Origin: Moesziomyces globuligerus
Taxonomy: Eukaryota > Basidiomycota > Ustilaginomycetes > Ustilaginales > Ustilaginaceae
Reading direction: 5' to 3'
Assembly: GCA_030849465.1 (NCBI GenBank)
Contig: JARVLF010000012.1
Coordinates: 124,001 to 188,000, forward strand
Length of the DNA: 64,000 nt
The notes under the pieces are model-generated. The model worked only from the letters and a program-made list of their open reading frames with translations. It did no database searches and was not told the DNA's origin. The position numbers were made by a program, and so were the translations under genes. Positions 47,851 to 63,057 of this stretch are shown here, one piece after another. The first letter of the stretch is position 1, and each line of letters begins with the position of its first letter.

Positions 47851-48056
47851 CGTGGGCGCAATATGAGAAGCACTGACGGATCTGTGCGGCCAAAGTCGAG
47901 CCTGTGATTGACCTATGTGGACAGGATGAAAGGGTGTGGGATGTGAAACGTCCGTGCTCTCTTCTTCCGGTCACTTCCTCCACACGAATCGTCGTGGTCG
48001 CGGTCGCAATTTGTTAGACCGCGTCCATCCCTCGACAGCTGGCAATCCAAACCAGT

Positions 48057-48060
48057 GTTG
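48057..48060. repeat. Target-site duplication of the outer element (left)
   Basis: GTTG, matched by GTTG at 63058-63061. Only four bases match exactly, whereas five is usual for Ty3/Gypsy. Confidence 0.6.
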
Positions 48061-48158
48061 TGTTGTCGAGCACGCGTCGAGTCAGCCGGGGCAAGGGGAT
48101 GGTAGTTGAATTACAAGGGGACGCGCGTCGAGCGCGTCTAGAAATGAGTCATAATACA
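48061..48158 (-). repeat. 3' LTR of the outer element (98 bp)
   Basis: Identical base for base to 62960-63057. Begins TGTTGTCGAG and ends ATAATACA on the plus strand. Very short for an LTR that must hold promoter and polyadenylation signals. Confidence 0.93.
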
Positions 48159-48171
48159 CCCTCCCTCCCTT
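48159..48171 (-). other. Polypurine tract of the outer element
   Basis: On the minus strand reads AAGGGAGGGAGGG and directly abuts the LTR, as expected for plus-strand DNA priming. Confidence 0.8.
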
Positions 48172-48173
48172 AA

Positions 48174-48905
48174 ATGAATCTATCCTTTCGACCACCATCT
48201 AACCAGCCTAGAGAAAATTCGCGAAAAATGGCTCCCCGCAAATCTAACAAGACCCCTGTCGAAAATCCCCCCGCTGGCGAACCTAACATGGTCGAAAATC
48301 ACGAAAATCGCGAAAATACCGAACCTAACAGGGCCGAAAATCACGAAAATCGCGAAAATCCAGCTCCTGGATCTAACACAGAACATATCGAAGTTCCGGC
48401 CACCCAGGCAGCCACCCTGGTCTGCTACCAATGCAGATCTAACCCTGCTCGATGCAAGATCGATCCCTCGAAGCCCTCGAAGTGCACTTACTGCCGTTCG
48501 AACACGGTCAACTGCAACGTCGATGACTCGATCCCCCAATTCAGGATCAAGCAAAACCTCGAGGAGTATCTTTCCCTTCGAGCCGCCTCGAACCCCAATC
48601 GACCCACCTCGAAGGCCTCGACCCTCGACAAGCCTTGGGTTCCGGCTCGAACTACCTTCGAGAACTCTCGACCTGGCTCGACTCCCACCTCGAAGACCTC
48701 GAAGCGCAAAGCCCAAGACATCGATGCTCCTCCTGCCATCGAAGTAACTGACGAGGCCAAAGAGCGCCTCGAAGCTATTCGAATCCGGATCAAGGAGATC
48801 GATCGCGAGATCGAAGCAAAGCAAGCACTTCGATCCACCTGGTCCAAGCACTTCAAGGGCCTTCGAGCTGCCAATGAGCTCGAGGCTGAGGTCGAAGACC
48901 TCTAA
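48174..48905 (+). CDS. Antisense accessory ORF of the outer element, six-cysteine (Zn2Cys6-like) protein
   Basis: Runs opposite to gag-pol and starts 15 bases from the LTR edge. 243 aa from ATG 48174; a second in-frame ATG at 48228 (MAPRKSNKTP) has a better context (AAAAATGG). An N-terminal tandem repeat (ENHENRENTEPNRA, ENHENRENPAPG) is followed by cysteines at 84, 87, 94, 104, 107 and 114, spacing C-x2-C-x6-C-x9-C-x2-C-x6-C. That is the spacing of fungal Zn(II)2Cys6 DNA-binding domains, although the usual basic residue after the second Cys plus three is Pro here. A basic, Ser-rich linker and a charged coiled-coil C-terminus (about 185-243) follow. It ends 59 bases from the convergent pol stop. 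Function is unknown; a DNA-binding regulator is inference. Confidence 0.75.
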   Translation: MNLSFRPPSNQPRENSRKMAPRKSNKTPVENPPAGEPNMVENHENRENTEPNRAENHENRENPAPGSNTEHIEVPATQAATLVCYQCRSNPARCKIDPSKPSKCTYCRSNTVNCNVDDSIPQFRIKQNLEEYLSLRAASNPNRPTSKASTLDKPWVPARTTFENSRPGSTPTSKTSKRKAQDIDAPPAIEVTDEAKERLEAIRIRIKEIDREIEAKQALRSTWSKHFKGLRAANELEAEVEDL

Positions 48906-48964
48906 CTTACCTGTACCTAGTTTCCACCTAACGATGCCAATCGAATTGTGTTCGAGTCTTCCCT

Positions 48965-49871
48965 TCACAGCTGAGAGTCCACCTGTGACTGATCGTACCT
49001 GTCGATCTCCTCAGCTGGTCTAGAGGGGTCTTCCTCCAGAGGGACGAAGTTGTCGTTTGGCACATCGACCGTTGGACCTTGGGGTCGATGTATATCGTGG
49101 GGCTCTTCTAGGGTTTCGTGGAGCTGTCTTGCCTGCAGCTCCCCACTGGTAGGGTCTGGTGCAGTCCTTTGTGGTTGATCTTCTGCCTCGTACTCTTCGT
49201 GAATTGCTCGTTCGATGTCTCGATGCAGTTCGTCCTGATCTAGACCTGCTACATCAGGGTTTACTGCTCGAAGCCTTCGAAAGAATACCTGAAACTCTGG
49301 CTTGTTCCAGAAGTCTTCGACTAGATTGTCTCGAGGATACGCTTTGATCAACCGATTACCATGCACCAGCGCTCGAAGCGCTTGACCGCTACTCGAAGCA
49401 AGGCTGTAAGTACCAAGAGCCTGTTTGGCTTTGATCTGGTAAGGACCAAACCATTTTGCTTCGAACTTCTGTGGATTCTGATGTCGAATCAGAACCCAAT
49501 CACCGACTTCCAACTTGTGCAGTTTGACCTTTCGATCATGCAGAGCCTTTGCTCGAACTGCTCGATTGTACGTTGCCTGAGCTGCCTTGTGTCTTTGAGT
49601 CTTAAGGTTGGGCAATCGAGTTCTAGGATCTTCGATTCGTCCTTCTAGCACTCTAGGCACCAGCTCGTCTGTCGGTAACCTAGGCTCAATGCCATAGGTC
49701 AGGAAAAATGGGCTTTGACCAGTTGCAGTCGACTTTCGAACCCGGCAAGCAAAGATCGCATTGGCTAGATATTGATCCCATAGCCTCGTGCTCTTTCCTA
49801 CCATTGATCGAGTCAACATCTTGCCAATAATCCCATTCAAGGCTTCGACTTTTCCGTTTGTCCTTGGGTGG
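48965..49871 (-). pseudogene. Outer pol, 3' part (integrase C-terminal half)
   Basis: Continuation of the outer pol after the inserted element. It begins at the right-hand part of the integrase core just before the catalytic Glu (NGKVEALNG), continues through a GPY/F-type module (WFGPYQIKAKQALGTYS) and ends with an acidic polar tail at a TGA at 48965. There is no chromodomain. The reading frame matches that of the 5' part once the insert and one GGTGG copy are ignored, so the break is the insertion alone and not decay. Cut off from its start, this part is not expected to be translated. Confidence 0.88.
49867..49871. repeat. Target-site duplication of the inner element (left copy)
   Basis: GGTGG, repeated exactly at 59043-59047. 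Confidence 0.95.
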
Positions 49872-49967
49872 TGTTACAGGCCTGGACCAGACCCTGATCG
49901 ACGCAGGCACGTGTGGAGGGCGCAGGCGAAAATCCGTAGCACGGGCTACGAGCGCGCCAAGTCGCGG

Positions 49968-50033
49968 TCCGGCGAGTGGAGGCCACTCGACGAATGCCGT
50001 CAATAATTCGCCGAGTGAGGCCCACTCGACGGA
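49968..50033. repeat. 27-bp palindromic sites, LTR cluster 1 (two units)
   Basis: Units at 49968-49994 and 50007-50033, each TYCGNCGAGT-N7-ACTCGNCGRA, exactly 39 bases apart start to start. They lie about 255-320 bases upstream of the TATA-like box. The same pair recurs in the 3' LTR at 58199-58225 and 58238-58264. Confidence 0.9.
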
Positions 50034-50287
50034 CGGCCTGCGGCGACCCCGGAAAACAACGAGCGGGTCATACGATGGACGTACCCGGCTCGGAGACGAA
50101 GGGGAGGAGGAGAGGGGTGCTCGTTGGCCCAGGGGGCAACGAGCGTAACGTGCAAAGGGGAGTCATGCACGAGAGGAGGCCTGAGCCCGAGGGGGTGGGC
50201 GAAACCTCCTGGCATCAATGAGATGCTAGCAGGGGCCGTTCGAGACGGCACCCTGCCACACGCTGGCCCTCCTGGTGAGGGCAAGTA

Positions 50288-50295
50288 CTTATAGC
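50288..50295 (+). promoter_or_regulatory. TATA-like box of the inner LTR
   Basis: CTTATAGC, the only A/T-rich box in this GC-rich LTR, shortly before a hairpin and pyrimidine-rich stretch that could mark the transcript start. Assignment is by position only. Confidence 0.4.
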
Positions 50296-50312
50296 TTCGA
50301 CTCATCGAGTGC

Positions 50313-50331
50313 GATGGGGCTGCGCCCCATC
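50313..50331 (+). other. Perfect hairpin downstream of the LTR TATA-like box
   Basis: GATGGGGC, loop TGC, GCCCCATC: eight base pairs with a three-base loop. It would lie near the 5' end of the genomic RNA if the TATA-like box is used. Confidence 0.6.
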
Positions 50332-50677
50332 CACTCTACTTTACTTTACATCACTCAGTCGTTACCATTCGTCAGTATCACTGTCTTTCAGTCCATTTGT
50401 CTCACAGTAGCAATCGCAGGGCGTTGCTACTACTTGCGTGTGTGTTGTATCACCGCTTCAGACGTCGTCGACACCTTCATCGACGCTACGGCACCTACAC
50501 CGTAGGCAGTACCTCCACTGCGGCCCTGGAACCTCCACCAGTGCCTCGACAACTGTCTGAGCATTACGAGCACTCGTGCTAAGACGGAAGTCCTTCCCAC
50601 GACGCCCAAAGGCGTCTGCAGCAATCGAGTCGTGCCGCGCTACCTCTGAACGGGGTGCTCACAGTGGTCAGCCGATA

Positions 50678-50782
50678 TCCGTTGAGTCGCGTCGACTCGC
50701 CGAATACCTCAGGCGATCCGTCGAGTCCACGCCACTCGCCGAACGAGTCAAATAATTCGCCGAGTCCACGTCACTCGCCGAA
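50678..50782. repeat. 27-bp palindromic sites, LTR cluster 2 (three units)
   Basis: Units at 50678-50704, 50717-50743 and 50756-50782, each start exactly 39 bases from the last, with unrelated spacers (CGCGTCG, CCACGCC, CCACGTC) and unrelated 12-base linkers. They lie between the TATA-like box and the gag start, so they would be in the 5' leader of the RNA. Repeated in the 3' LTR at 58909, 58948 and 58987. Confidence 0.92.
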
Positions 50783-50849
50783 CAAGGATTTCGGGCACGC
50801 GACCCCTGACATTAGAGTGGATCGTTCAAGCAGCTCCCCACGACTCACC

Positions 50850-52277
50850 ATGGCGGACGAGACCCTCGTCAAGAAGCTGGATGAGCTCATCAGCCTGGTC
50901 AAAGCCCAGCTCGAGCTCACCAACCGGGCCAATCAAGAGGCCATGACGGCCCGAGCCCGCCAGCACCTTACTGAGCGTCTCTCGCAGGTCCCCGAGGAGC
51001 AGGCCGACGAATCCTCGTTCGCCGACCCGCCCACCCCTACGCCTGCGGCTCGTCCTCGCCGATCGGTGTCCTTCGCTGACGATGGCGAACGCACCTACAC
51101 CGACCGCGAGACGTACTCGACTCCGACCGGCAGTCGCTACACGAAGCCAAGGACGGAGGCCGCCTCAGGCGAGGAGGGGTACGATACCATCTCGCTCGAG
51201 GATCTTCCGCATAGCCAGCAGAAGTCCCTCTCGACGCCCTTCCCCAAGTTCAACCCCCGTGACGTCGAACTCTTCGTGATCGAGGCCGAGGCCTGGTTCA
51301 AATTCAACCGAGTCTACGACCACGAGACGATGATCAACTACACGGGCACCCAGCTTGACGGCAGCGCTCGCGAGTGGTGGACCTCCAAGCTCCGAGTCGA
51401 CCGGCCACGCCAAGGCAAGTTGTTCCATGACTGGCACTTCTTCACGAAGCGCCTCTCAGAGCAGTACAACCCGCGCAACGTCAGGATGGAGGCCTACAAC
51501 AAGCTGTTGGCCCTTCGTCTCACTAGCGACACCCCGGGCGCGGCCACTCGCCACGTCGAGCGGTTCCGCGATCTCGAGAGCCAGGTCAACCTCGAAGACA
51601 CCGAGCTGCTCATCGACCTGTTCCGAGGCAGCCTGACTCGCAGTCTGCAGGAGAAGTTCGAGCGCAACCCGCCCAGCGATCGCTGGGGGTGGTATCGCGA
51701 GGTCGAAGAGATCGACAGGCAGAGGATGTCTCTGCAGCAGGCCTCTTCCAGGCACCCAAGCCTACCGGCCCCGCGCGGGGGCATAGCAGCAAGCCAGCGC
51801 CCTGTAGGGCCCGCCGCGGTCAGCCCAGCCCGCCAGCCTGCCCCTCCGGCGCCTGGCACGCCGTATCGGCCCGGCAACCGGCCCCTGCCGCCGCACTTGG
51901 CGCAGAACCTTAGGCCGCGCGCCCCGGCAGGAGGCACAGGGCCCACGACGTTTGGTAGCACGGTTTGCCACCTGTGCCAAGGCACAGGCCACTGGGCACG
52001 AGACTGCCCAAGCAGGAAGGCACCGCCGGCAACCCCGAGGCCGGCTGGCCCAAGGGTCGCAGTGGCACTCGAGGACCCGCAACAAGGCGACCAGCCTCCA
52101 GAGGAAGCTGTGGAGGCGGAGCAGGCTGACGATGGTGAGGACTACGGGTACGACTCGGTCGATCAAGAGCCCCTGGACCTCACCCAGTTCGAAAGCCCTG
52201 CTGCGGCCGCCAACCACGCAGCTCCTCGAGACGACAACGATGACGCCCAGGAAAACTGCTATGGGGCGATGCACTAA
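50850..52277 (+). CDS. Inner element Gag (capsid-nucleocapsid)
   Basis: 475 aa structural polyprotein. I chose ATG 50850 (ACCATGG context, MADETLVKKLDEL); the open frame upstream is LTR. An N-terminal helical region is followed by a Ty3/Gypsy gag domain (about 140-290, including YNPRNVRMEAYNKL), a Pro-rich linker and one CCHC zinc knuckle CHLCQGTGHWARDC at about 373-386. It ends in an acidic tail. Its stop codon TAA shares its last A with the ATG of pol (TAATG, 52275-52279). Confidence 0.92.
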   Translation: MADETLVKKLDELISLVKAQLELTNRANQEAMTARARQHLTERLSQVPEEQADESSFADPPTPTPAARPRRSVSFADDGERTYTDRETYSTPTGSRYTKPRTEAASGEEGYDTISLEDLPHSQQKSLSTPFPKFNPRDVELFVIEAEAWFKFNRVYDHETMINYTGTQLDGSAREWWTSKLRVDRPRQGKLFHDWHFFTKRLSEQYNPRNVRMEAYNKLLALRLTSDTPGAATRHVERFRDLESQVNLEDTELLIDLFRGSLTRSLQEKFERNPPSDRWGWYREVEEIDRQRMSLQQASSRHPSLPAPRGGIAASQRPVGPAAVSPARQPAPPAPGTPYRPGNRPLPPHLAQNLRPRAPAGGTGPTTFGSTVCHLCQGTGHWARDCPSRKAPPATPRPAGPRVAVALEDPQQGDQPPEEAVEAEQADDGEDYGYDSVDQEPLDLTQFESPAAAANHAAPRDDNDDAQENCYGAMH

Positions 52278-55200
52278 TGGCATGCATGGCCCTACATCCC
52301 TGGACGCCATCCATCTGTAAATATCAAGATTGCGCTCTTTGTTTCTCAGCCAGCGACGGCAAGGCGGTGCTCGAGTTGACCGGAACGGTCCAAGGCCACC
52401 CGGCTCGCATCCTCGCCGACACCGGCGCTGGCCTGTCCATAGTCTCAGGTTCGTTCGCCCGCAAACACAAAATACCATCAAAAACAGCAAAAACAACAAC
52501 AATACATGGTGTCACCGGGCACCAGATGACCACGCGGTCCATGGCGATGACCCGGGTAGCAATTGGGGGCCACGACCTCGGCCCAGTGCCCGCGTGGGTA
52601 GTGGACGTGGCCGACTACGACTTCATCCTGGGGTATCGGGCTCTACGACGGCTCAAACCAACTATCCATTGGGATACCGGGCAACTCGAGTTCGAGCTGC
52701 TAGGGCCGATGCAGGCCTATAACGCGTCCCAGGATGACGGGTCGCTTCTACCGAGAGCCGTCAAGGAGGGCGCTCGGCGAATTTCGGTGGTGTCCGCCGA
52801 GTCGTGCCCACTCGCCGAACCTCCACTTTCGTCCGCCGAGACGCGCCGACTCGGCGAATTACCGCCCCTGTCCGTCGAGTCGACCCCACCCGCCGAACGT
52901 CAAACTTCGGCAAAGCTCCACGGCCACGAGTTTGTATCCGCCGAACGCTTGATGCAAGCAGCCGTCGAAGACGGCCCAATTGGGTTCATGCTTCTAGAGG
53001 ATCCCTGGGATTCCCTCCCGGCGTTCGGGGTCGTGCCCACCGGAGCCGACAAGGGGGTGGAGATGGAGGTGGAGCCCGACAAGCCGGTGTCGGTCGAAGA
53101 GATCCCAGAGCCTTACAGGCATCTGCGAGGCGTCTTCGACGAGGTGGAGGCAGACCGGCTACCGCCACACACGGATCATGACCTCCGCATCGACTTGGTT
53201 GAGGGCAGCAAGCCCCCTCAAGGGCCGCTGTACCTCAAGGGGCCCAAGGAGATGGCAGAACTCCGCAAGTACTTGGACGAGAATCTCGCCAAGGGCTTCA
53301 TTCGGCCATCAAAGAGCCCGGCGCGGTCACCGGTGCTCTTCGTGCCCAAGAAGGACGGTGGCCTTCGTCTCTGTGTCGACTACAGAGGGCTCAACGAAAT
53401 CACAATCAAGAATCGCGCACCACTACCGCTCATCGAGGAGCAGCTGTTCCTCTTGCGCAAGGCCAAGATCTACTCGAAACTGGACCTCAAGGCCGCCTAC
53501 AACCTGATTCGCATCTCCAGCGGCGATGAATGGAAGACGGCATTTGGGACCCAGCTTGGGCTATACGAGTACTTGGTGATGCCGTTCGGCCTGGCAAATG
53601 CCCCAGCTCACTTCCAGTCGTTCATCAACCACATCTACCGCGACATCATTGGTGTGTATGTGGTGGTGTACTTGGACGACTTCCTCATCTTCAGCGACAC
53701 ACTCGACGAGCACATCAAACACGTCACAGAGGTGCTCACAAGGCTCAAGCAGCACAGACTCTTCGCCAAGCTGTCCAAGTGTGCTTTTCACACCAACACG
53801 GTCGAATTCCTGGGGTACATCATCAAGCCCTCAGGGATCGAGATGGACCCAGAGAAGGTCCGCACGGTCAAGGAATGGCCTATGCCGGAGTCGATCCACG
53901 ACATCCAGCGCTTCCTTGGGTTTGCGAACTTCTACCGGCGGTTCATCTCCCACTTTGCCCGGATCGCCAAGCCCCTCACGTCCCTGGTGAAGCCAACGGA
54001 ACGCTTCAAAAAGTTCGAGCTGCCGGAAGACGCCAAGCAGGCCTTCCACAAGCTCATACAAGCGTTCACGACGGCAGGAGTGCTAAGACACTTCGATTAC
54101 CACCTGCCAACGCGGCTCGAGACGGACGCCAGCGACTTTGCCATTGCCGGGGTCCTGAAGCAGGAACACGAGGGCCGGTGGCACCCGGTCGCATACTACT
54201 CGCGGAAGATGGCGCCCGCCGAGAAGAACTACGAGATCCATGACAAGGAGCTTCTCGCAGTTGTGGCATGCCTCACCCAGTGGCGCCATATGCTGGCAGG
54301 GCTGCCTAGTCAGCTCGTCATTCTCACGGACCACGAGGCGCTCAAGTACTTCAAGTCGCAACGCCGCATCACGGGCAGGCAGGCACGCTGGGCGGTGTTG
54401 CTAGCAGACTTCAACTTCGTGTTGCAGTACCGGCCAGGGGATAAGGCCGGCGAGCCTGACGCCCTGACTCGGCGTCGCGACATGGAGCCGGCAGGCGAGG
54501 AGCGCGAGCACAACGTGCGGCAGCTATTGCCCTCCCGCGTATTTGCGGTAGAGCACGAGCCAATTCGGCGAGTCCTTGCAACTCGACGAACGTCCGCCGA
54601 GTCACCGGAACTCGACGGACACGCTCCGACCATGGCCAATATCGCCTCGGAAGGACTGCTAGGCCTCGCCAAGACCTTCCAACCGCTCGATAAAGAGTTG
54701 GCCGAGCTGCACGCCAAAACACCGTTCGAGGAGAAGAACGGAGTGTGGTACAAGGAAGGCCGGTTGGTAGTGCCGAAGGTAACCATGCCAGGTAGCACCA
54801 CCGACCGCAAGACTCGTCACGCCCGCGAGGTGGACGAGCAGTCGCTGTCGGTGGAGCACCTTCGCTTCATGGTAATGTCGCAGTGCCATGACGGAGTGGC
54901 GGCCGGCCACGTTGGCCGCGACGCCACGCTGCACCTGGCACGTCGACACTACTGGTGGCCAGGTATGACAACCTGGATAGCGGACTACGTCGCGAGCTGC
55001 CCTGTCTGCGCCAGATACAAAGCGCCCAGACACAAGCCATATGGCTTGCTGCAGCCACTCGCAACGCCGCAACGGCCATGGGGTTCCATATCGATGGACT
55101 TCATCGAAGGCCTGCCGCTGTCGAGCGGGTACGACTCCATCTTGGTAATCGTCGACCGCTTGACCAAGTATGCAGTCGTCGCCCCGACGCACAAGACAGC

Positions 55201-56137
55201 GACAGCCGAGCAAACCGCCGAGCTCCTCAAGCTTCACTTGTTCGCCCACTTTGGCGTCCCGGACCACATTGTGTCGGACAGGGGACGCCAGTTCATCTCG
55301 AAGACCTGGAGCGAGTTCGTCAGCAGCTTGGGAGCAAGGCACTCCCTCAGCACGGCCTATCACCCGCAGACGGATGGCCAGACGGAACGTGTCAACCAAG
55401 TCCTGGAGCAGTACCTTCGCATGTACTGCAACTACCAGCAGGACGACTGGGTTAGCCTGCTCAGCGGGGCCGCCTTCGTCTACAACAACACGGTGCACAC
55501 GAGCATCGGCGTCTCGCCCTTCTTCGCGTGCTACGGCTGGAACCCAAAGTCTCACCCGGAGATCCCGGCCAAGCTCGGCGTAAACGACACCAGTCGGGCC
55601 GAGTTCCTGGCGCAGGGCAGCGAGCGGTTCCACTACCTGCAAGACCAGATCCGGCAAGCACAACGCCGAGCGGTCGAGCAATACAACCGCAAGCACAAGG
55701 ACATCGAGTTCAAGGTCGGCGACCTGGTCTACGTCAACCGAAAGAACTGGATGACCAAAAGGCCGTCGCCCAAGCTCGATACGAGGTTCGCCGGCCCATT
55801 CCCGGTGAAGGAGCGCATCGGCAGACGGGCGTATCGCCTCACCTTGCCCGCAAGCCTCCGCGTGCACGACGTCTTCCACGTCTCGATGCTGGAGCCCGCC
55901 AAGAGCAGCGCACTGCCTCAACGCGCATTGCTACCGGTGGAACCGCCTCTGCCGGACGAAGAGCTCGAATACGAGGTGGAGGCCATCATCGGCAAGCGCA
56001 TCCGAAACCGCCAGGTCGAATACAAGGTCCTATGGCGCGGCTACTCAGAGGAAGCAGCGTCCTGGGAGCCCACCGACCTCCTCAGCTGTCCAGACCTCAT
56101 CCGGGAGTATGAGGAATTGGCGGGGGGACGGGCCTAG
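52277..56137 (+). CDS. Inner element Pol (PR-RT-RNaseH-IN-chromodomain)
   Basis: 1286 aa polyprotein. Aspartic protease ADTGAG near 47-52. Reverse transcriptase with DYRGLNE, MPFGLANAP and catalytic YLDD at about 465-468. RNase H begins at ETDASDFAIAGVL. Integrase has an HHCC finger (HDGVAAGH to CPVCARYK, about 870-915), and D, D and E in MDFIEGLP (about 940), SDRGRQF (about 1000) and GQTERVNQ (about 1037). A chromodomain follows at about 1229-1281 (VEYKVLWRGYSEEAASWEP), which in chromoviruses can direct integration to modified chromatin. No stops or shifts are seen. Between PR and RT, and again before IN, palindromic 27-bp sites are embedded in the coding sequence. Confidence 0.96.
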   Translation: MACMALHPWTPSICKYQDCALCFSASDGKAVLELTGTVQGHPARILADTGAGLSIVSGSFARKHKIPSKTAKTTTIHGVTGHQMTTRSMAMTRVAIGGHDLGPVPAWVVDVADYDFILGYRALRRLKPTIHWDTGQLEFELLGPMQAYNASQDDGSLLPRAVKEGARRISVVSAESCPLAEPPLSSAETRRLGELPPLSVESTPPAERQTSAKLHGHEFVSAERLMQAAVEDGPIGFMLLEDPWDSLPAFGVVPTGADKGVEMEVEPDKPVSVEEIPEPYRHLRGVFDEVEADRLPPHTDHDLRIDLVEGSKPPQGPLYLKGPKEMAELRKYLDENLAKGFIRPSKSPARSPVLFVPKKDGGLRLCVDYRGLNEITIKNRAPLPLIEEQLFLLRKAKIYSKLDLKAAYNLIRISSGDEWKTAFGTQLGLYEYLVMPFGLANAPAHFQSFINHIYRDIIGVYVVVYLDDFLIFSDTLDEHIKHVTEVLTRLKQHRLFAKLSKCAFHTNTVEFLGYIIKPSGIEMDPEKVRTVKEWPMPESIHDIQRFLGFANFYRRFISHFARIAKPLTSLVKPTERFKKFELPEDAKQAFHKLIQAFTTAGVLRHFDYHLPTRLETDASDFAIAGVLKQEHEGRWHPVAYYSRKMAPAEKNYEIHDKELLAVVACLTQWRHMLAGLPSQLVILTDHEALKYFKSQRRITGRQARWAVLLADFNFVLQYRPGDKAGEPDALTRRRDMEPAGEEREHNVRQLLPSRVFAVEHEPIRRVLATRRTSAESPELDGHAPTMANIASEGLLGLAKTFQPLDKELAELHAKTPFEEKNGVWYKEGRLVVPKVTMPGSTTDRKTRHAREVDEQSLSVEHLRFMVMSQCHDGVAAGHVGRDATLHLARRHYWWPGMTTWIADYVASCPVCARYKAPRHKPYGLLQPLATPQRPWGSISMDFIEGLPLSSGYDSILVIVDRLTKYAVVAPTHKTATAEQTAELLKLHLFAHFGVPDHIVSDRGRQFISKTWSEFVSSLGARHSLSTAYHPQTDGQTERVNQVLEQYLRMYCNYQQDDWVSLLSGAAFVYNNTVHTSIGVSPFFACYGWNPKSHPEIPAKLGVNDTSRAEFLAQGSERFHYLQDQIRQAQRRAVEQYNRKHKDIEFKVGDLVYVNRKNWMTKRPSPKLDTRFAGPFPVKERIGRRAYRLTLPASLRVHDVFHVSMLEPAKSSALPQRALLPVEPPLPDEELEYEVEAIIGKRIRNRQVEYKVLWRGYSEEAASWEPTDLLSCPDLIREYEELAGGRA
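52793..52897. repeat. 27-bp palindromic sites inside pol, cluster A (three units)
   Basis: Units at 52793-52819, 52832-52858 and 52871-52897, again exactly 39 bases apart. All start in codon phase 0, so each unit encodes nine residues of the type SAESCPLAE, SAETRRLGE and SVESTPPAE between protease and RT. Degenerate half-sites flank the cluster (for example GCTCGGCGAA at 52772-52781). Confidence 0.9.
54564..54619. repeat. 27-bp palindromic sites inside pol, cluster B (two units)
   Basis: Units at 54564-54590 and 54593-54619. Spacing is 29 rather than 39 bases, and the first unit is in a different codon phase from the second. Located between RNase H and the integrase zinc finger, where protein sequence is least constrained. 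Confidence 0.88.
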
Positions 56138-56454
56138 ACAGGCGGCGGGGAAGGAGCGCGGCGGAGGGGGCGCTCAGAGAGGATTCGGCGAGTATAGCGG
56201 ACTCGACGAATTTGCAGGATGATTCGGCGAGTCGAGGCGACTCGACGAATTGCAAACTCGATCCGCCGAGTGCGCGTCACTCGACGGATAGGGAAACAGC
56301 CCGACGCGAAGACCAGGAGGGCAACAACAAGCACACAGCCAGGGGACTCAACGACCAGAAGCTCGCTCAGGCTGGTCGCAGGCAAGCTCAACGGGGACAG
56401 GTCACAGTCTCACACAAGCAAGAAGAGCCAAGACGCTGGGATTACCTCACGTCG
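56138..56454. other. Non-coding spacer of the inner element
   Basis: 317 bases between the pol stop and the end of the convergent antisense ORF. It holds palindromic cluster C and otherwise no supported coding sequence. Confidence 0.6.
56184..56288. repeat. 27-bp palindromic sites downstream of pol, cluster C (three units)
   Basis: Units at 56184-56210, 56223-56249 and 56262-56288, 39 bases apart. The middle one (TTCGGCGAGT-CGAGGCG-ACTCGACGAA) has a single mismatch between arms. Located in the 3' non-coding part, beyond the 3' end of the antisense ORF. Confidence 0.92.
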
Positions 56455-58029
56455 CTACATGTCGATGTAGGAGCCGTCGCTGGGGCCCGGAGGGAAGACG
56501 GGCTCGTCAATAGGGTCGGGAGCTCCACCAGACACGGCGACGGACTCGTGCGGCTGACGCTCCGAGTATAGCGAGTGCCAACACTCCGAGAAGCGCAGCA
56601 TCACCCGCAGCAGGGGAAGGCGCAGGCGGGCCGCCGGGATCCGGAACACTCGGCGGGTCGCGACGGTCCAACCGAAGGTCTCGGTCGGGATCGTCATCCG
56701 GTCGTACGACCGGATGGCGCCTGGCCCCGGAGCACCTGCCACCGACAGGTTGGCACGTTCGGCACGTTGGCGCAAGCGGCCCGTGGGAGTGCCGTCGCCC
56801 GGGTACTCCATACCGGGGAAGGCGCGGACGCTGCGATCGCAGTTGCCGACATCAGCAAGGTGGCAGTGCGTGCACACCCGCGGCAAACGACTGCGCTCCC
56901 CATACGGGTTGGGGAACGCTGAGGGGAAACAGCTGCGAGGAAGAGGAGGAGGTCAGCAATGGCCGAAGCAGGAACAAGGAGCAGGACACGGTACTTACGG
57001 AACGCCCAGGTCAGCGCACCGGCGACACTGCCAGCTCGGCCAAGGCATGCAGCCCTCGGTCAAACGCATCATGACGATGCGCTGTAGCCGCTGCTCGGCG
57101 TTAGAGCCCGCCGCGACGAGCCAGTTCCGAGGGTATCGACCCTCGGCCACGCGCACCAACAAGTCGGCAACCTCGTACTGCCCCGACCAGCCGATGATCT
57201 CGGCATGCGACGGCTCGCGTTGGTCGGGGGGCGGCGGCGACGGGGTGCGAGGAACCTCCCACCGAGGGGGAGGCGTCAGGCGCTGCACATCCCGCTCGAA
57301 GACGGGTGTGGCAGACCGACCAAAGGGCTGGGAAGGCTCAGCGCGGCCGGGAGACGTGGGGACGGCGGCCTCGACGTCGTCGAAAGCAGCCACCGGGGAC
57401 GAGGGGACCACGTAGACGGCCCCCCAGCGATCCAGCTGCTCCCCCAGCGACAAGCCAACCGCAGCAGCTCGACGCTCGCGGTTGAGACGCGCCTCCTCAG
57501 CCGCCGCAGCCATGCCCTCCGCAGTCGGAGACGGCGGGGAGTACGACGGCGACCGCGGCTCAGAGGCCCGCGCCGGACTGGCGGGCACGGGGGGCGGCGA
57601 CCACGGGGCGTACACCGGGCTCCGGGGGGACGACAGCGGTACGGGGCTGCCCGACGCCGGACCGCTTGATGGCGCGGAGCCCAGGAATAGAGCCTCCAGC
57701 GGCGCATGGCCACTGGAGTCGAGGGCCGCGGCGGACGCAGCTCGAGGCGGTGGTGGAGTGATGGCCGGCGCGGGGGTCGGCTCGGCGGCCGATGCAGACA
57801 CGCCGCGCGTACGCGAACGCGAGGTGACCCTGCGCCGCTTCGACAACGCCGACTCTGCCTCGGGCGAGGCCAAGCGACGAGGAGATGCCGGCCCAACGGG
57901 GGCCAAAGAGTCGGAGGGCCCAGCCGTGGAATCGGCAGGGCGAGAGGGGGGGGGAAGGAGTGCCGCGCGAGCGGCAGCGGCACGAGCGCGGGTCACGCGC
58001 GGGGAGGAGCGCAGGGTGGGAGGCGCCAT
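56455..58029 (-). CDS. Antisense accessory ORF of the inner element, spliced six-cysteine protein
   Basis: Opposite in direction to gag-pol, starting 73 bases from the 3' LTR. Exon 1 is 58029-56999 and exon 2 is 56932-56455. The 66-nt intron has GTAAGT, TGCTGACC and CTCGCAG signals, giving 502 aa. The first half is disordered and Pro/Ser/Ala-rich with basic patches (SKRRRVTSRSRTR). A more ordered part (about 200-335) leads into cysteines 335, 338, 345, 364, 367 and 375: C-x2-C-x6-C-x18-C-x2-C-x7-C. The splice falls between the second and third cysteine, so the motif exists only in the spliced product. The tail is acidic. A presumed promoter lies in the 3' LTR read backwards. DNA binding is inference; basic residues typical of Zn2Cys6 are sparse. 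Confidence 0.75.
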
Positions 58030-58090
58030 GGTTGGGAAGGAGATGATGGAGAGACGGAAGGGGCACGGCCTCGACGGAGCTCGGCTCTTA

Positions 58091-58102
58091 CGAGGGGGGT
58101 AG
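58091..58102 (+). other. Polypurine tract of the inner element
   Basis: CGAGGGGGGTAG immediately before the 3' LTR. The G-rich core fits a plus-strand primer, though a T interrupts it. Confidence 0.55.
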
Positions 58103-59042
58103 TGTTACAGGCCTGGACCAGACCCTGATCGACGCAGGCACGTGTGGAGGGCGCAGGCGAAAATCCGTAGCACGGGCTACGAGCGCGCCAAGTCGCGGTC
58201 CGGCGAGTGGAGGCCACTCGACGAATGCCGTCAATAATTCGCCGAGTGAGGCCCACTCGACGGACGGCCTGCGGCGACCCCGGAAAACAACGAGCGGGTC
58301 ATACGATGGACGTACCCGGCTCGGAGACGAAGGGGAGGAGGAGAGGGGTGCTCGTTGGCCCAGGGGGCAACGAGCGTAACGTGCAAAGGGGAGTCATGCA
58401 CGAGAGGAGGCCTGAGCCCGAGGGGGTGGGCGAAACCTCCTGGCATCAATGAGATGCTAGCAGGGGCCGTTCGAGACGGCACCCTGCCACACGCTGGCCC
58501 TCCTGGTGAGGGCAAGTACTTATAGCTTCGACTCATCGAGTGCGATGGGGCTGCGCCCCATCCACTCTACTTTACTTTACATCACTCAGTCGTTACCATT
58601 CGTCAGTATCACTGTCTTTCAGTCCATTCGTCTCACAGTAGCAATCGCAGGGCGTTGCTACTACTTGCGTGTGTGTTGTATCACCGCTTCAGACGTCGTC
58701 GACACCTTCATCGACGCTACGGCACCTACACCGTAGGCAGTACCTCCACTGCGGCCCTGGAACCTCCACCAGTGCCTCGACAACTGTCTGAGCATTACGA
58801 GCACTCGTGCTAAGACGGAAGTCCTTCCCACGACGCCCAAAGGCGTCTGCAGCAATCGAGTCGTGCCGCGCTACCTCTGAACGGGGTGCTCACAGTGGTC
58901 AGCCGATATCCGTTGAGTCGCGTCGACTCGCCGAATACCTCAGGCGATCCGTCGAGTCCACGCCACTCGCCGAACGAGTCAAATAATTCGCCGAGTCCAC
59001 GTCACTCGCCGAACAAGGATTTCGGGCACGCGACCCCTGACA
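58103..59042 (+). repeat. 3' LTR of the inner element (940 bp)
   Basis: Identical to the 5' LTR except C at 58629. Carries five palindromic sites: 58199-58225, 58238-58264, 58909-58935, 58948-58974 and 58987-59013. The first pair lies about 170-235 bases upstream of the antisense ORF start. Confidence 0.97.
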
Positions 59043-59047: not shown

Positions 59048-61851
59048 TATGCTGTAGCCAATCGATGCCGCGTTTTGATCGTTCGAAGCAGATGTTCGAC
59101 AACTTCGGCCAGGAAGTTGGAACCATTATCGCTTAGAATCTCTTTGGGTGCCCCAAAGTTGAGTACGATCTCTTCGTAGATGAAGTCGGCAACCCTCCAG
59201 GCTTTTGCATCTGGTAGAGCCTTTGCAATAGGCCAGCCTGTTGCATAGTCGATTGCTGTTAGAATCCATTGGTTACCGCTAGATGTCTTCGGTAGCTGAC
59301 CAATGAAATCGATCCCCCACCTTTCGAAAGGTTGGATAGTCGAACTTGCCATGACTTGTGCGAGTTCTCGATCTTGGTTCGATCGTGATCCTTGCGATAC
59401 TTGGCACTCGACACATGTCTTACAGAACCTCGATAGGTCTGCCTGCATGTGTGGCCAGTATGCCCTGGTTCGAACCAGACCTAGCAGACCTGCTGCTCCT
59501 AGATGGCCATACGATCGATGCATCTTGTCCAAAAAGTGAGATCTATGCATGGGCTCCAGGTAAGGTGCTTGTTCGCCATCTTCGAGAATCCGCACTAACT
59601 GATCATCTGCGTCGAGCCTCCAGTGACCTGCTTCTTCGAGCACCAGTGACCTTTCTAGGCCATCAGGGACGTCTCCCTGCCTTAGATAAGTCTTGATGAG
59701 GTCTAGATGATTCGGTTCCTCCGTTAGAGAGCCCAAGAAATCCGATCGACGGGAAATTGCATCTGCAACTGTGTTCTCTTCCCCTGCTCGATACTTGATA
59801 TCCAGGTCGTACTCCCCGAATTCCGCAATCCATCTTTCTAACCTCTTCGAGGCAATCTTGGTCCTCGGTATCTGGGCTAGACTTTGATGATCAGTCAGAA
59901 TGGTAATCTTGCAACCATTCAAGATGTAGTGTCTCCAGGTTCGAAGGGCATGTCGAATGGCCAACAGCTCCTTTTCATGAACTGGATACTTGAGCTCTGC
60001 TTCAGACATCTTTCTTCCATCGAAGGCAACAGGATGCATCTTGCCAGTAGATCGATCCTCCTGTAGCAGCACACAACCAATAGCCCAGTCTGATGCATCT
60101 GTCTCGATGGTGTACTTCGAGGCAGGGTCAGGCTGTCTAAGGATCGGTTCTGAACAGAGTAGGCCTTTGATCTTTCTAAAGGCTAGATCTGCTTGATCGT
60201 TCCAGACGACCGGCACTTTCCTACTGTTCTTCGAGGAGATATCTAAGCCGCTCCCTTTGTTGACCTTGAGTAGATCGAAGAGTGGTGCTGTGATCGAAGC
60301 AAAGCCCCTGGCATATCTTCGATAGTACGAGCACAACCCTAAGAACGATCTCAGGTCGTGGATGGAAGATGGTCGAGGCCATTCTCGAATCAGCTTGACC
60401 TTATCTTCTAGGGGCTTGATTGTCCCTTGCCCAACTAGATGACCGCAAAACTCGATCGACTTGGCACCAAAGGTACACTTAGAGGGTTTTGCAAAGAGTC
60501 GATGCTCTTGAAGAACCGCCAGGATTCTTTGAACATGTTCTCGATGCTCCTCTAGCGTTTTTGAGTAGATCAAGATGTCATCTAAGTAGACAATGACAAA
60601 TTTGTCTAGAAAAGGTCGAAGTACTCGGTTGACGAGGGTTTGGAAAACCGAAGGGGCATTCTTGAGACCAAAAGGCATCACCAAGAATTCGAACTTCCCA
60701 ATTCGAGTATTGAAGGCTGTCTTTGAGACATCTTCCTTGTTGAGTCTAATCTGCCAGTAACCTGAGGTTAGATCAATTTTCGAGAACCATTGAGCTTGAC
60801 CGAGTTGATCGAGGCATTGCTGGATGATGGGTAGAGGGTACCCATTGGTTGCAGTGATTGCATTCAGTGCTCGATAGTCGATGCACATGCGCCAACCTCC
60901 ATCCTTCTTGGGCACAAAGATTACAGGAAACCCCCATGGGCTCGAGCTTTCTCGGATCATTCCTCGATCTAAGAGGGCTTGTACCTGCTCTTCTTGCTCT
61001 CGAAGCTGACTTGTGGTCAGATTATATGCTCGAATGTTCTTTGGTCCTTCCTCTCCTGTGCAGATGATGCTATCTTGAAGTTGTCGAAGCATCGGAATAG
61101 ACTCGATCCTCTCATCCTCTGGTATGTCTGTTCGAAAGACATTCCCATACTTCTTGAGGATTGATTTGATCTTCGAGTCTTCAACCTTGGCTGTATAGCC
61201 ATCAAGATTGACCTCGAGATCCTCTCGCACCACTAGAAGGAAGCAGTGACTCTCCTTCTTCATGATCGAGTTCATCTCCTTATGATCAAGGAGATCTAGG
61301 GGCCGATCCATGTTGTCTATGCTGTCCAACAGCAAAACACGATCTGATCGTCTGCCCATTAGAGCCTGCTTGATGGTTCCATCCTCGAATCGAAAGCTGA
61401 CTATGTTTGTCTCGAAATCAAGGTTGACTTGATTTGCTCTAAGCCACTCGATACCTAAGATCAAGTCATGGTGTGGCATCCGCAGCACCAATGCTTTCGT
61501 TGGGTATTCGAAGCCATCTAGCTCCATTCTAAGCTGTACGGTTCCTTCGACTTGAAGACCTGAACCATCTGCCAGCTTTACCTGTGATTGTGGACCTTCA
61601 GCTTCTACTTGAAGCGGGATTGTGTCCACCAAAGATCTTGATACAAAGGTTCGAGACGCACCAGTGTCAATCAGAGCCTTGAAGGAGCGACCTTCGACTC
61701 TGACCTGTAGTTCGATCAAGCAAAAATCTCCAGGATTTTCTTGATTTGCTACAACATTGAGGTGTCGAACCCTTCGAACCAAATCTTGTTCGATCGATGT
61801 TGATGTTCTGTTGTCAAGGGCAGCGCTTTGATCGAGAGCTCCCTGACTCAC
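59043..61851 (-). pseudogene. Outer pol, 5' part (PR-RT-RNaseH-IN up to the break)
   Basis: Open from the end of gag to the insertion point. It has protease ALIDTGASRTF, RT with DYRALN, MPFGLKNAP and YLDD (about 60575-60590), RNase H TDASDWAIG, and the integrase finger (HRSHFLDKMHRSYGH to CKTCVECQ). The first two acidic residues of the core follow (WGIDFIGQL and DNGSNF). It then runs into inner LTR sequence and stops after a dozen foreign residues. There is no ATG at the gag/pol junction. The frame is -1 relative to gag and is open across the slippery site at 61866-61872. Protease and RT could still be made; integrase cannot. Confidence 0.93.
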
Positions 61852-62906
61852 ACTCGATCCTGACCATTTCCCAACTGCGCAGGTGTTTCTTCGATCAAGG
61901 TCAATCGACGCCCTTGTGGAACTGTGATGACACAGTCAGAGGATCGATGTCCTGCCTGACCACATTTGAAGCATAGATTATTCCGCTTGCAGCGCTTCAT
62001 GAATTCGAGCTTGGCCTGGTTGCCTTGATTTGCTCGACCTTGGTTCGATTTACCTTGGGCAGGGGAAGACATCTGAACCCTGGGCTGGTTTTGAAACGAC
62101 CTCGAAGCTCTCTCGACTGCCTGATCATCGAGAAACCGGCTGTAGATCTTATCGGCAAATCGAGCAAGTGCCCTTAGAGTGGTAGGCTCGTCAGGTACGA
62201 GGCTAAGTCGGTTCAGAACTTCCCTGTTCAGACCTTTCCTGAACTTCTCGACCCTTAGAGATTCGGGGATAGGGGGATCAATGCGTTCGGCAAACTTAGA
62301 GAACTCGATGAGATACTCCCCCACCGGTCTCTTGCCTTGGACACAATTATCGTAGTCTCGTCGGCGCTTGTGGACCGCATTGATATCCTCGAACTCCGTT
62401 CTAATCCAGTTGATGAACTGATCGAAGGTCAGTTTCTGGAATAGATTGGTCTCGGTTCCAGGGCTTGCGGTATCATCGAAGGTTTGTTCCAGCTTAGAAC
62501 GTTCGATGGCCCAAGCTTCTTTGGCTGAACCAGTCAAGCTGTTGGCAGCATAGAGGATCTTCTCGAGTTCTGTGGGCAGTGCACCCTGTATCTCGAGGAG
62601 ACTAACGCAGTCTCTAACTTGCATGATCCACATTCGAACTGCGTTGTCCTCTACCGTTCCATCGAAGAACGCAGGTCGAGTACTGACCAGTCTGTTCCCA
62701 GCTTGATTGGGTTGAGCGGTAGATCGAAGCTCCCTGACTTGGGTAGACAGCTCTATGACCATCTGTCGAAGGAACTCAATCTCGCTCCCATCCCTCGATG
62801 GATCACCTTCGCCTTGGGTGGCCATCGATGCGGCTACTCTAGCGCTACGACGCTCTGTTGTGGGCACCGAGTTCACGGTGTTGTTGCTTGTCTGGTTGTT
62901 TGACAT
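61848..62906 (-). CDS. Outer element Gag
   Basis: 352 aa. A Ty3/Gypsy gag domain covers about 75-245 (FFDGTVEDNAVRMWIMQV at its start, then GEYLIEFSKFAERI), followed by a basic Gln/Asn-rich linker and one CCHC knuckle CFKCGQAGHRSSDC near the C-terminus. ATG 62906 lies 53 bases inside the right LTR, with no other upstream start. It ends TGA at 61848-61850, a few codons after the heptamer GGGAAAT. Confidence 0.93.
   Translation of the reverse strand: MSNNQTSNNTVNSVPTTERRSARVAASMATQGEGDPSRDGSEIEFLRQMVIELSTQVRELRSTAQPNQAGNRLVSTRPAFFDGTVEDNAVRMWIMQVRDCVSLLEIQGALPTELEKILYAANSLTGSAKEAWAIERSKLEQTFDDTASPGTETNLFQKLTFDQFINWIRTEFEDINAVHKRRRDYDNCVQGKRPVGEYLIEFSKFAERIDPPIPESLRVEKFRKGLNREVLNRLSLVPDEPTTLRALARFADKIYSRFLDDQAVERASRSFQNQPRVQMSSPAQGKSNQGRANQGNQAKLEFMKRCKRNNLCFKCGQAGHRSSDCVITVPQGRRLTLIEETPAQLGNGQDRV
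61866..61872 (-). promoter_or_regulatory. Putative -1 ribosomal frameshift site, outer gag/pol
   Basis: Minus strand G GGA AAT in gag phase, the X XXY YYZ heptamer, 15 bases before the gag stop codon. Slipping back one base enters the pol frame without a stop. No hairpin lies in the usual 5-9 base window; a modest one (GGGAGC pairing with GCT-CCC) starts 22 bases on. Confidence 0.65.
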
Positions 62907-62944
62907 CTTGTAGAGTGTTTACTTTTCTATGATGTATCGAGATT

Positions 62945-62957
62945 GCAGAAGCTACCA
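62945..62957 (-). other. Candidate primer-binding site of the outer element
   Basis: Minus strand TGGTAGCTTCTGC, two bases inside the 5' LTR. TGGTAGC is what a tRNA ending GCTACCA (initiator Met type) would prime. The full tRNA cannot be checked here. Confidence 0.5.
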
Positions 62958-62959
62958 AG

Positions 62960-63057
62960 TGTTGTCGAGCACGCGTCGAGTCAGCCGGGGCAAGGGGATG
63001 GTAGTTGAATTACAAGGGGACGCGCGTCGAGCGCGTCTAGAAATGAGTCATAATACA
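62960..63057 (-). repeat. 5' LTR of the outer element (98 bp)
   Basis: Identical to 48061-48158. For gag-pol this is the upstream copy. No TATA box is obvious; the sequence TGTATTATGA opens it on the minus strand. Confidence 0.93.

What the first reader, a model, noticed from the sequence alone, without database searches (positions are those of the whole stretch)
49968..59013. 18 copies of a rigid 27-bp palindrome, phased at 39 bp, confined to the inner element
TYCGNCGAGT-N7-ACTCGNCGRA occurs at 49968, 50007, 50678, 50717, 50756, 52793, 52832, 52871, 54564, 54593, 56184, 56223, 56262, 58199, 58238, 58909, 58948 and 58987. Arms are conserved; the 7-base spacer and 12-base linkers are not. Within clusters the start-to-start distance is exactly 39 bases, except one pair at 29. 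The clusters sit in LTRs, in two unconserved parts of pol and after pol. Fixed arm spacing with free spacer sequence is what dimeric protein sites look like. Three units in pol keep codon phase, so they behave as tolerated insertions. I saw none in the host or outer element.
Basis: seen in the sequence. Interest (0 to 1): 0.9.

Follow-up and report, generated by a model that had tools for sequence, protein, structure and literature searches.

The report
Retrotransposon carrying phased DNA-binding-site arrays
A family of jumping genes in a smut-related fungus carries many copies of one rigid DNA landing site plus its own backwards-encoded, probably DNA-binding protein, which suggests that the element recognises and regulates itself.

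Summary
In detail: all 18 palindromes TYCGNCGAGT-N7-ACTCGNCGRA are there (14 exact; 0.22 expected). They sit in a 9.17-kb Ty3/gypsy chromovirus (940-bp LTRs, one difference). The 18.5-Mb genome holds 303 sites at <=2 mismatches; I placed 295, all in DNA of this family. Exact pairs: 199 with loop 7, none at loops 0-6 or 8-30. Lone half-sites are near background, so specificity lies in the pair. In 38 distinct LTRs non-CpG arm bases barely change (0.12 changes/site) while linkers change fastest (1.87) at fixed length. Variable arm bases do not pair: dimer sites in DNA, not hairpins. The element also carries an antisense gene between pol and 3' LTR (502 aa, 66-bp intron, exon-2 dN/dS 0.074) with CX2CX6C-X18-CX2CX7C, invariant in the 7 relatives aligned (whole pattern in 10 of 17 hits). 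Two other Ty3 families here have antisense ORFs of that type, but no phased palindromes. Best explanation: the antisense protein binds the arrays as dimers and controls its own family, like VANC in Arabidopsis VANDAL. Sites and gene are shown; binding and function are inferred. Pfam and AlphaFold do not confirm the zinc cluster.

The parts
49872..50811 (+). 5' LTR of inner chromovirus (940 bp)
   Evidence: identical to the 3' LTR but for one base at 50398; TSD GGTGG
49968..50033 (.). U3 cluster, 2 palindromes (49968, 50007), 39-bp phase
50678..50782 (.). cluster near LTR 3' end, 3 palindromes (50678, 50717, 50756), 39-bp phase
50850..52277 (+). gag ORF (475 aa)
   Evidence: Retrotrans_gag 8.9e-07, zf-CCHC 6.7e-06; dN/dS 0.170
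52277..56137 (+). pol ORF (1286 aa): protease, RT, RNase H, integrase, chromodomain
   Evidence: RVT_1 6.8e-36, rve 1.9e-14, Chromo 2.4e-14; dN/dS 0.114
52793..52897 (.). PR-RT linker cluster, 3 palindromes (52793, 52832, 52871), frame 0
54564..54619 (.). RNaseH-integrase linker cluster, 2 palindromes (54564, 54593), 29-bp distance
56184..56288 (.). post-pol cluster, 3 palindromes (56184, 56223, 56262), in the gap between the convergent pol and antisense genes
56999..58029 (-). antisense gene, exon 1 (ATG at 58029); first two Cys of the motif, the third right after the intron
   Evidence: dN/dS 0.284
56933..56998 (-). 66-bp GTAAGT..CAG intron of the antisense gene
   Evidence: GTAAGT and CAG kept in 13 of 13 rows with data (3 further rows have none)
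56455..56932 (-). antisense gene, exon 2; last four Cys of the motif
   Evidence: dN/dS 0.074
58103..59042 (+). 3' LTR of inner chromovirus
58199..58264 (.). U3 cluster of 3' LTR, 170-235 bp upstream of the antisense ATG
   Evidence: distance from coordinates
58909..59013 (.). 3-palindrome cluster of 3' LTR

Best explanation
The inner element is a Ty3/gypsy chromovirus with its own regulatory module. The spliced antisense gene between pol and the 3' LTR makes a zinc-cluster-like protein. It binds TYCGNCGAGT-N7-ACTCGNCGRA as a dimer, one subunit per 10-bp half-site, and several dimers sit on the same face of the DNA in the 39- or 29-bp arrays (the two phases differ by about one helical turn). 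The arrays stand in the U3, the LTR end, both free linkers of pol and the pol/antisense gap, so a dimer that needs both halves would mark element copies and hardly any host DNA. Most likely effect: activation or protection from silencing of its own family, plus autoregulation through the U3 pair, which faces both the sense promoter and the antisense gene. Shown: sites, constraint, confinement of the pairs, the gene and selection on it. Inferred: that this protein is the binder, dimer binding, the sign of the effect.
For: Fixed loop: 199 exact pairs when loops 6-8 are searched, 0 at loops 0-6 and 8-30; 205 of 205 exact pairs in window and fetched loci have loop 7 (overlapping loci counted twice). 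Constraint: non-CpG invariant arm bases 5 changes in 42 sites (0.12/site) against linker 1.87, spacer 0.60, other LTR 0.51 in 38 distinct LTRs; variable internal columns 7 of 64 in arms against 28 of 76 in linkers and spacers, p 0.0004. No pairing covariation. Confinement: 303 sites, 295 placed, 0 of 296 occurrences in fetched loci outside element-homologous DNA. Antisense gene: dN/dS 0.074 in exon 2, lower than pol 0.114; splice sites kept in 13 of 13 rows with data. Six motif Cys invariant in the 8 sequences aligned (7 of 17 relatives chosen); whole pattern in 10 of 17. Three Ty3 families each have an antisense ORF after pol with this Cys pattern; the pattern occurs in only 2 of 380 stop-to-stop pieces of window+L045+L046, both being such ORFs. 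Relative pol P0018 has 3 core-compatible units in the homologous linkers, two of them 13 codons apart.
Against: No binding data. Pfam Zn_clus is not reached (best E 9.4 for 1 of 8 inner-type proteins, 2.7 for family B, none for the outer ORF); AlphaFold gives pLDDT <50 over the Cys region and Foldseek finds nothing. A 10-bp half-site is longer than a classical zinc-cluster triplet (recalled). Single half-sites are common in the genome: 946 exact against 829 for the reversed control, 398 of them in the 199 exact pairs, so a protein that needs only one half would not be family-specific. Families outer and B have antisense zinc-cluster-like ORFs but no phased palindromes, so gene and arrays need not go together. 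CpG bases of the arms decay as fast as elsewhere, and against the whole rest of the LTR the fraction of variable arm sites is only weakly lower (5/42 vs 153/623, p 0.063). The third PR-RT unit is imperfect in every copy shown. 7 of 17 homologue models lack the whole Cys pattern (two end at the intron).
Confidence: 0.52

Rival explanations
1. The arrays bind a host dimeric factor (a host zinc-cluster or heterochromatin-nucleating protein); the element has gathered host sites either as enhancers/insulators or because the host evolved to silence it. The antisense protein does something else.
For: Arrays of host-factor sites inside LTR elements are known (Su(Hw) in Drosophila gypsy; recalled). Lone half-sites do exist throughout the genome.
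Against: A host factor with this dimer site should have some host pairs; 295 of 303 sites were placed and none lies outside element DNA; the reversed control pattern gives 2. Lone half-sites are not clearly above control (946 against 829, and 398 of the 946 are in exact pairs).
Confidence: 0.25
2. The palindromes act as RNA hairpins in the sense or antisense transcript (packaging, dimerisation, RNA protection).
For: Clusters fold below shuffled energies (z -1.6 to -5.4 over 5 clusters and both strands, mononucleotide shuffles).
Against: Low energies follow from the palindrome itself. Position 5/23 is pairable in only 14 of 74 distinct sites (shuffle mean 29.4, all 2000 shuffles at or above 14) and position 2/26 is at chance, 40 against 38.5.
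Confidence: 0.05
3. The arrays are a minisatellite that spread by duplication and mean nothing.
For: Units are tandem, dispersed over the element, and tolerated in pol linkers.
Against: Drift would not hold loop length 7 in every exact pair, keep non-CpG arm bases while adjacent linkers change about 15 times faster per site, and keep linker length.
Confidence: 0.05
4. The antisense protein binds the arrays but as a repressor that limits sense transcription or copy number.
For: The U3 pair lies between sense promoter and antisense gene; antisense-encoded regulators of retroviruses such as HTLV-1 HBZ repress sense transcription (recalled).
Against: Same data as the best explanation; arrays far from promoters, inside pol, are less expected for simple repression.
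Confidence: 0.13

Closest known systems
VANC proteins and their motif arrays in Arabidopsis VANDAL transposons (PMC5735166 passages read; PMC10398659 abstract)
   Same: Element-encoded DNA-binding protein, short motif repeated at high density in copies of the same family, mainly in noncoding parts; motifs differ between families.
   Different: VANDAL is a Mutator-type DNA transposon; the motif YAGTATTAY is arrayed in one orientation, not as a phased inverted pair; VANC is no zinc-cluster protein as far as I know (recalled). Anti-silencing is shown there, only inferred here.
Antisense regulators of retroviruses (HTLV-1 HBZ) and direct DNA-binding transactivators (foamy virus Tas); recalled, not looked up
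   Same: Spliced antisense gene near the 3' LTR that controls the element's own transcription (HBZ); element protein that binds element DNA (Tas).
   Different: bZIP or other folds; no site arrays through pol; vertebrate viruses.
Su(Hw) site array of Drosophila gypsy (recalled)
   Same: Array of zinc-finger protein sites in an LTR element that changes its chromatin.
   Different: Host protein, one array in the leader, not inverted 27-bp units.
Fungal Zn2Cys6 transcription factors of the Gal4 type (recalled)
   Same: CX2CX6C-X(5-12)-CX2CX6-8C pattern; dimers on inverted CG-rich half-sites with a fixed spacer.
   Different: Here the loop is 18 residues, the Pfam model is not reached, half-site 10 bp, encoded antisense in a retrotransposon.
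Plant Tat/Grande-type LTR elements with antisense extra ORFs (recalled; paper searches failed)
   Same: Additional ORF in antisense between pol and 3' LTR.
   Different: No site arrays known to me; unrelated proteins as far as I recall.

Membership tests
Ty3/gypsy chromovirus | PR-RT-RH-IN order with C-terminal chromodomain, LTRs, TSD | tested here: met
Zn2Cys6 (Pfam Zn_clus) protein, antisense product | six Cys with CX2CX6C-Xn-CX2CX6-8C spacing, conserved | tested here: met
   whole pattern in 10 of 17 homologue models; loop of 18 is longer than the usual 5-12 (recalled)
Zn2Cys6 (Pfam Zn_clus) protein, antisense product | reaches the family profile | tested here: not met
   best E 9.4 in 1 of 8; not filed as a member, called zinc-cluster-like
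Zn2Cys6 (Pfam Zn_clus) protein, antisense product | binuclear cluster fold | tested here: inconclusive
   pLDDT <50 in the region of homologue P0001; no match
VANC-like self-recognition system | motif arrays almost only in copies of the family | tested here: met
   for the paired site; not so for single half-sites
VANC-like self-recognition system | element protein binds the motif and reverses silencing | not testable with these tools
   needs EMSA, DAP-seq, methylation data
VANC/VANDAL family proper | Mutator-type DNA transposon | tested here: not met
   LTR retrotransposon
RNA hairpin element | compensatory pairing of variable arm positions | tested here: not met

The most novel reading that the evidence does not exclude
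Smut-lineage Ty3/gypsy elements carry a general antisense-encoded zinc-cluster regulator that reads a family-specific CG word: phased TYCGNCGAGT palindromes in the inner family, saturating TCGA in the outer one (157 of 315 CpGs), CCGTCG-like words in family B (48 against 20.7 expected). Each family thereby recognises and protects only itself, and word and protein co-evolve (the relative pol P0018 implies ATCG..CGAT in place of TYCG..CGRA at the outer arm positions, a pattern fitted after seeing it).
Probability: 0.3. Interest if true: 0.92.

Novelty: new variant of a known kind. Interest (0 to 1): 0.77.

Why it matters
If the antisense protein reads the arrays, this is a self-specific DNA-binding regulator encoded by an LTR retrotransposon, a fungal counterpart of plant VANC. 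It would let one ask directly how retrotransposons escape silencing without harming the host, how a protein and dozens of dispersed sites change together, and why subtelomeres fill with one family. The arrays give a ready assay: one protein, one 27-bp probe, and a spacer-length test.

Tried and rejected
RNA hairpins: rejected on anti-pairing at position 5/23. Chance or host-wide paired motif: rejected; the single half-site, however, is near background in the genome. Same palindrome in other Ty3 families of the genome: the dyad scan finds GAGT-N7-ACTC (11 observed, 0.21 expected) in the inner element only; its top scores in family B and the outer element show no such pair. Related DNA in viral contigs: none. 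Structure of the antisense homologue P0001: low confidence, no fold match. Solved-structure and NCBIfam searches gave nothing useful. A divergent copy of the inner antisense gene in another family of this genome: none evident among 31 matches at E <= 1, lowest identity 60%. A reading of P0019 (U. trichophora) as carrying a similar motif is suggestive only: 13-residue repeats by eye, no core-compatible site. Literature: worked; 59, 60, 64, 67, 71, 74 and 76 failed, so I make no claim that this is absent from print. A search for relatives of the outer antisense ORF could not be made.
Full report
OBSERVATION. The motif scan finds exactly the 18 sites listed, 14 exact and 4 with one mismatch, against 0.22 expected in dinucleotide shuffles. 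The host element is a Ty3/gypsy chromovirus: LTRs 49872-50811 and 58103-59042 (940 bp, one difference), TSD GGTGG, gag 50850-52277, pol 52277-56137 with protease, RT, RNase H, integrase and chromodomain. Since the LTRs repeat five sites there are 13 distinct ones, in five places: U3, the LTR end, the protease-RT linker, the RNase H-integrase linker and the gap after pol.

GENOME. The window lies in an 18.54-Mb, 24-contig genome in which the pattern with up to two mismatches occurs 303 times; the reversed control occurs twice. Fetched DNA plus window held 291 of these sites and L047 four more, 295 in all; the 18 of the window are in the element, and of 296 occurrences in the fetched loci (some loci overlap) 296 lie in DNA homologous to the element and none outside. 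Eight sites were not placed. Exact arms with loops 6-8 searched: 199 pairs; with loops 0-6 or 8-30: none, so the 199 all have loop 7. With up to one mismatch per arm, fetched DNA gives loop 7 in 297 cases and loop 24 once. A result that limits the claim: the half-site TYCGNCGAGT alone occurs 946 times against 829 for its reversed control; 398 of the 946 are in the 199 exact pairs. Half-sites are thus not special to the element; the rigid pair is. Start distances under 80: 39 (155), 29 (11), 40 (2), 78 (2). The named relatives of its proteins are Ustilago and Melanopsichium, so the host is probably a smut-lineage fungus.

CONSTRAINT. In 42 LTR rows (38 distinct; one 304-bp duplicate fragment left out) I counted changes on a tree. 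Non-CpG invariant arm bases: 5 changes in 42 sites. Linker: 56 in 30. Spacer: 15 in 25. Other LTR: 320 in 623. CpG bases change often everywhere, arms included (1.47 against 1.21 per site), mainly C to T, in the arms mostly on terminal branches (44 of 56), as in decaying copies. Against the other-LTR rate 21.6 arm changes were expected (Poisson 2e-5), but the fraction of variable sites differs less (5/42 against 153/623, p 0.063); against linkers it is 2.5e-6. Internal clusters, 12-13 copies each: 7 of 64 non-CpG arm columns vary against 28 of 76 in linkers and spacers (p 0.0004); the PR-RT cluster alone is weak, 6 of 24, and its third unit is imperfect in all rows shown. Linkers keep 12 bases in the LTR rows printed; two copies have 13 after pol.

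NOT A HAIRPIN. In 74 distinct sites position 2/26 is pairable in 40 (shuffle mean 38.5) and position 5/23 in 14 (shuffle mean 29.4, all 2000 shuffles as high or higher); related rows are not independent. In the 13 window sites the figures are 6 against 5.7 and 1 against 3.6 symmetric. Half-sites vary on their own, as for two protein subunits. The two phases 39 and 29 differ by 10 bp, near one helical turn (inference).

ANTISENSE GENE. On the minus strand an ORF starts at 58029, 73 bases before the 3' LTR begins; with a 66-bp GTAAGT..CAG intron it gives 502 aa ending at 56455. Across copies exon 2 has dN/dS 0.074 (11 distinct rows), exon 1 0.284 (14), pol 0.114 (11), gag 0.170 (11); five other frames of exon 2 give 0.17 to 5.06, the lowest being a sense frame. 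All 13 rows with data over the intron keep GTAAGT and CAG while the intron drifts; 3 partial rows have none. An intron readable only in antisense survives retrotransposition of the sense RNA (established logic). Residues 255-502 have 17 relatives at E <= 1, 15 named and all from Ustilago or Melanopsichium, 2 unnamed. In an alignment of the window protein with 7 of the 17, the six motif Cys, C335, C338, C345, C364, C367 and C375, are invariant; of all 17 models, 10 hold the whole pattern and 7 do not, P0013 and P0014 because they end at the intron and P0012 and P0016 with altered models (the other three not looked at). Antisense homologue and pol homologue have equal longest-contig lengths in three pairs (P0001/P0019 553710, P0002/P0021 703213, P0013/P0018 6000), which suggests that the pairing of genes is older than this species.

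THREE FAMILIES. The outer element (minus strand) has, antisense to it and after its pol, ORF 48174-48905 with CX2CX6CX8CX2CX6C; a third family (RT 58% identical; L045) has L045:595-1260 with CX2CX6CX8CX2CX7C. A pattern C..C.{6}C.{5,24}C..C.{6,8}C hits 2 of 380 stop-to-stop pieces of at least 100 aa in window, L045 and L046, and these are the two ORFs; none of 20000 shuffles of any of the three proteins hits. Pfam does not confirm: Zn_clus E 9.4 in 1 of 8 inner-type proteins and 2.7 in family B, both below cut-off, none for the outer ORF. AlphaFold of P0001 is poor there (mean pLDDT 52), and Foldseek has no match at E <= 0.001. I therefore say zinc-cluster-like.

RELATIVE ELEMENTS. Without their DNA, I asked whether each of 121 pols (the 120 listed of 492 hits, plus the window's) could encode the core CGNCGAG-N9-CTCGNCG. 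108 cannot anywhere, 11 can once, the window's can four times, and P0018 (unnamed source, 6-kb contig) three times, all in the same two linkers, two of them 13 codons (39 bp) apart; 200 shuffles of P0018 average 0.28, maximum 2. Its outer arm letters would be ATCG..CGAT, not TYCG..CGRA (fitted after seeing it). Of the 10 relative pols printed, six from U. hordei and Ustilago sp. have short PR-RT linkers without repeats, P0020 and P0021 have long ones without such repeats, and P0019 (U. trichophora) has 13-residue repeats by eye but no core-compatible site.

MECHANISM AND LIMITS. The simplest joint account is a self-encoded dimeric DNA-binding protein with arrays in stretches that are free of essential code. 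The U3 pair of the 3' LTR lies 170-235 bp upstream of the antisense ATG, and that of the 5' LTR upstream of a TTATAG at 50289, so it could serve both directions. VANC of Arabidopsis is the nearest worked example: element-specific, dependent on motif density, mainly noncoding sites (PMC5735166, passages read; PMC10398659, abstract). Against: families B and outer lack phased palindromes, so arrays are not a necessary companion of the antisense gene. Binding is untested; activation against repression is a guess weighted by the arrays far from promoters.

NOVELTY. PMC9603552 on LTR elements in smuts has no antisense, zinc or palindrom in its main text (term search only). The listings (1 paper; 15 of 89; 10 of 1,759) show no title on such arrays in LTR elements; seven later searches failed, so novelty rests on an incomplete search.

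Noticed in passing
47990-49866 and 59048-63000 (outer element): TCGA makes up 157 of 315 CpG contexts, the other 15 contexts 158 together. It exceeds synonymous-codon shuffles in all four ORF pieces tested (e.g. 66 against 35.5 sd 4.3 in pol, 0 of 1000 as high).
   Followed up: partly
48174-48905: Antisense ORF of the outer element with a zinc-cluster-like Cys pattern; 5 matches at 95-100% in the genome, two of them partial, and two distant ones at 27-28%.
   Followed up: partly
L045:595-1260: Third Ty3 family, apparently inserted in another copy of the outer element, with its own antisense zinc-cluster-like ORF; most of the 22 matches to the ORF lie near contig starts or ends.
   Followed up: partly
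L005, L006 (C21:532773-550183): Two inner elements in tandem sharing the middle LTR. At C4, C11 and C20, whose contigs start with telomere repeats, truncated copies begin within about the first kilobase.
   Followed up: no
56455-58029: Synonymous divergence in the antisense gene (dS about 0.29-0.30) is more than twice that of pol (0.124) or gag (0.130) among the copies.
   Followed up: no
49872-50811 and copies: At CpG positions LTR copies change mostly by C to T or G to A (197 of 266 CpG changes), as with cytosine methylation.
   Followed up: no
52275-52279: gag stop and pol start overlap as TAATG, a stop-restart arrangement.
   Followed up: no
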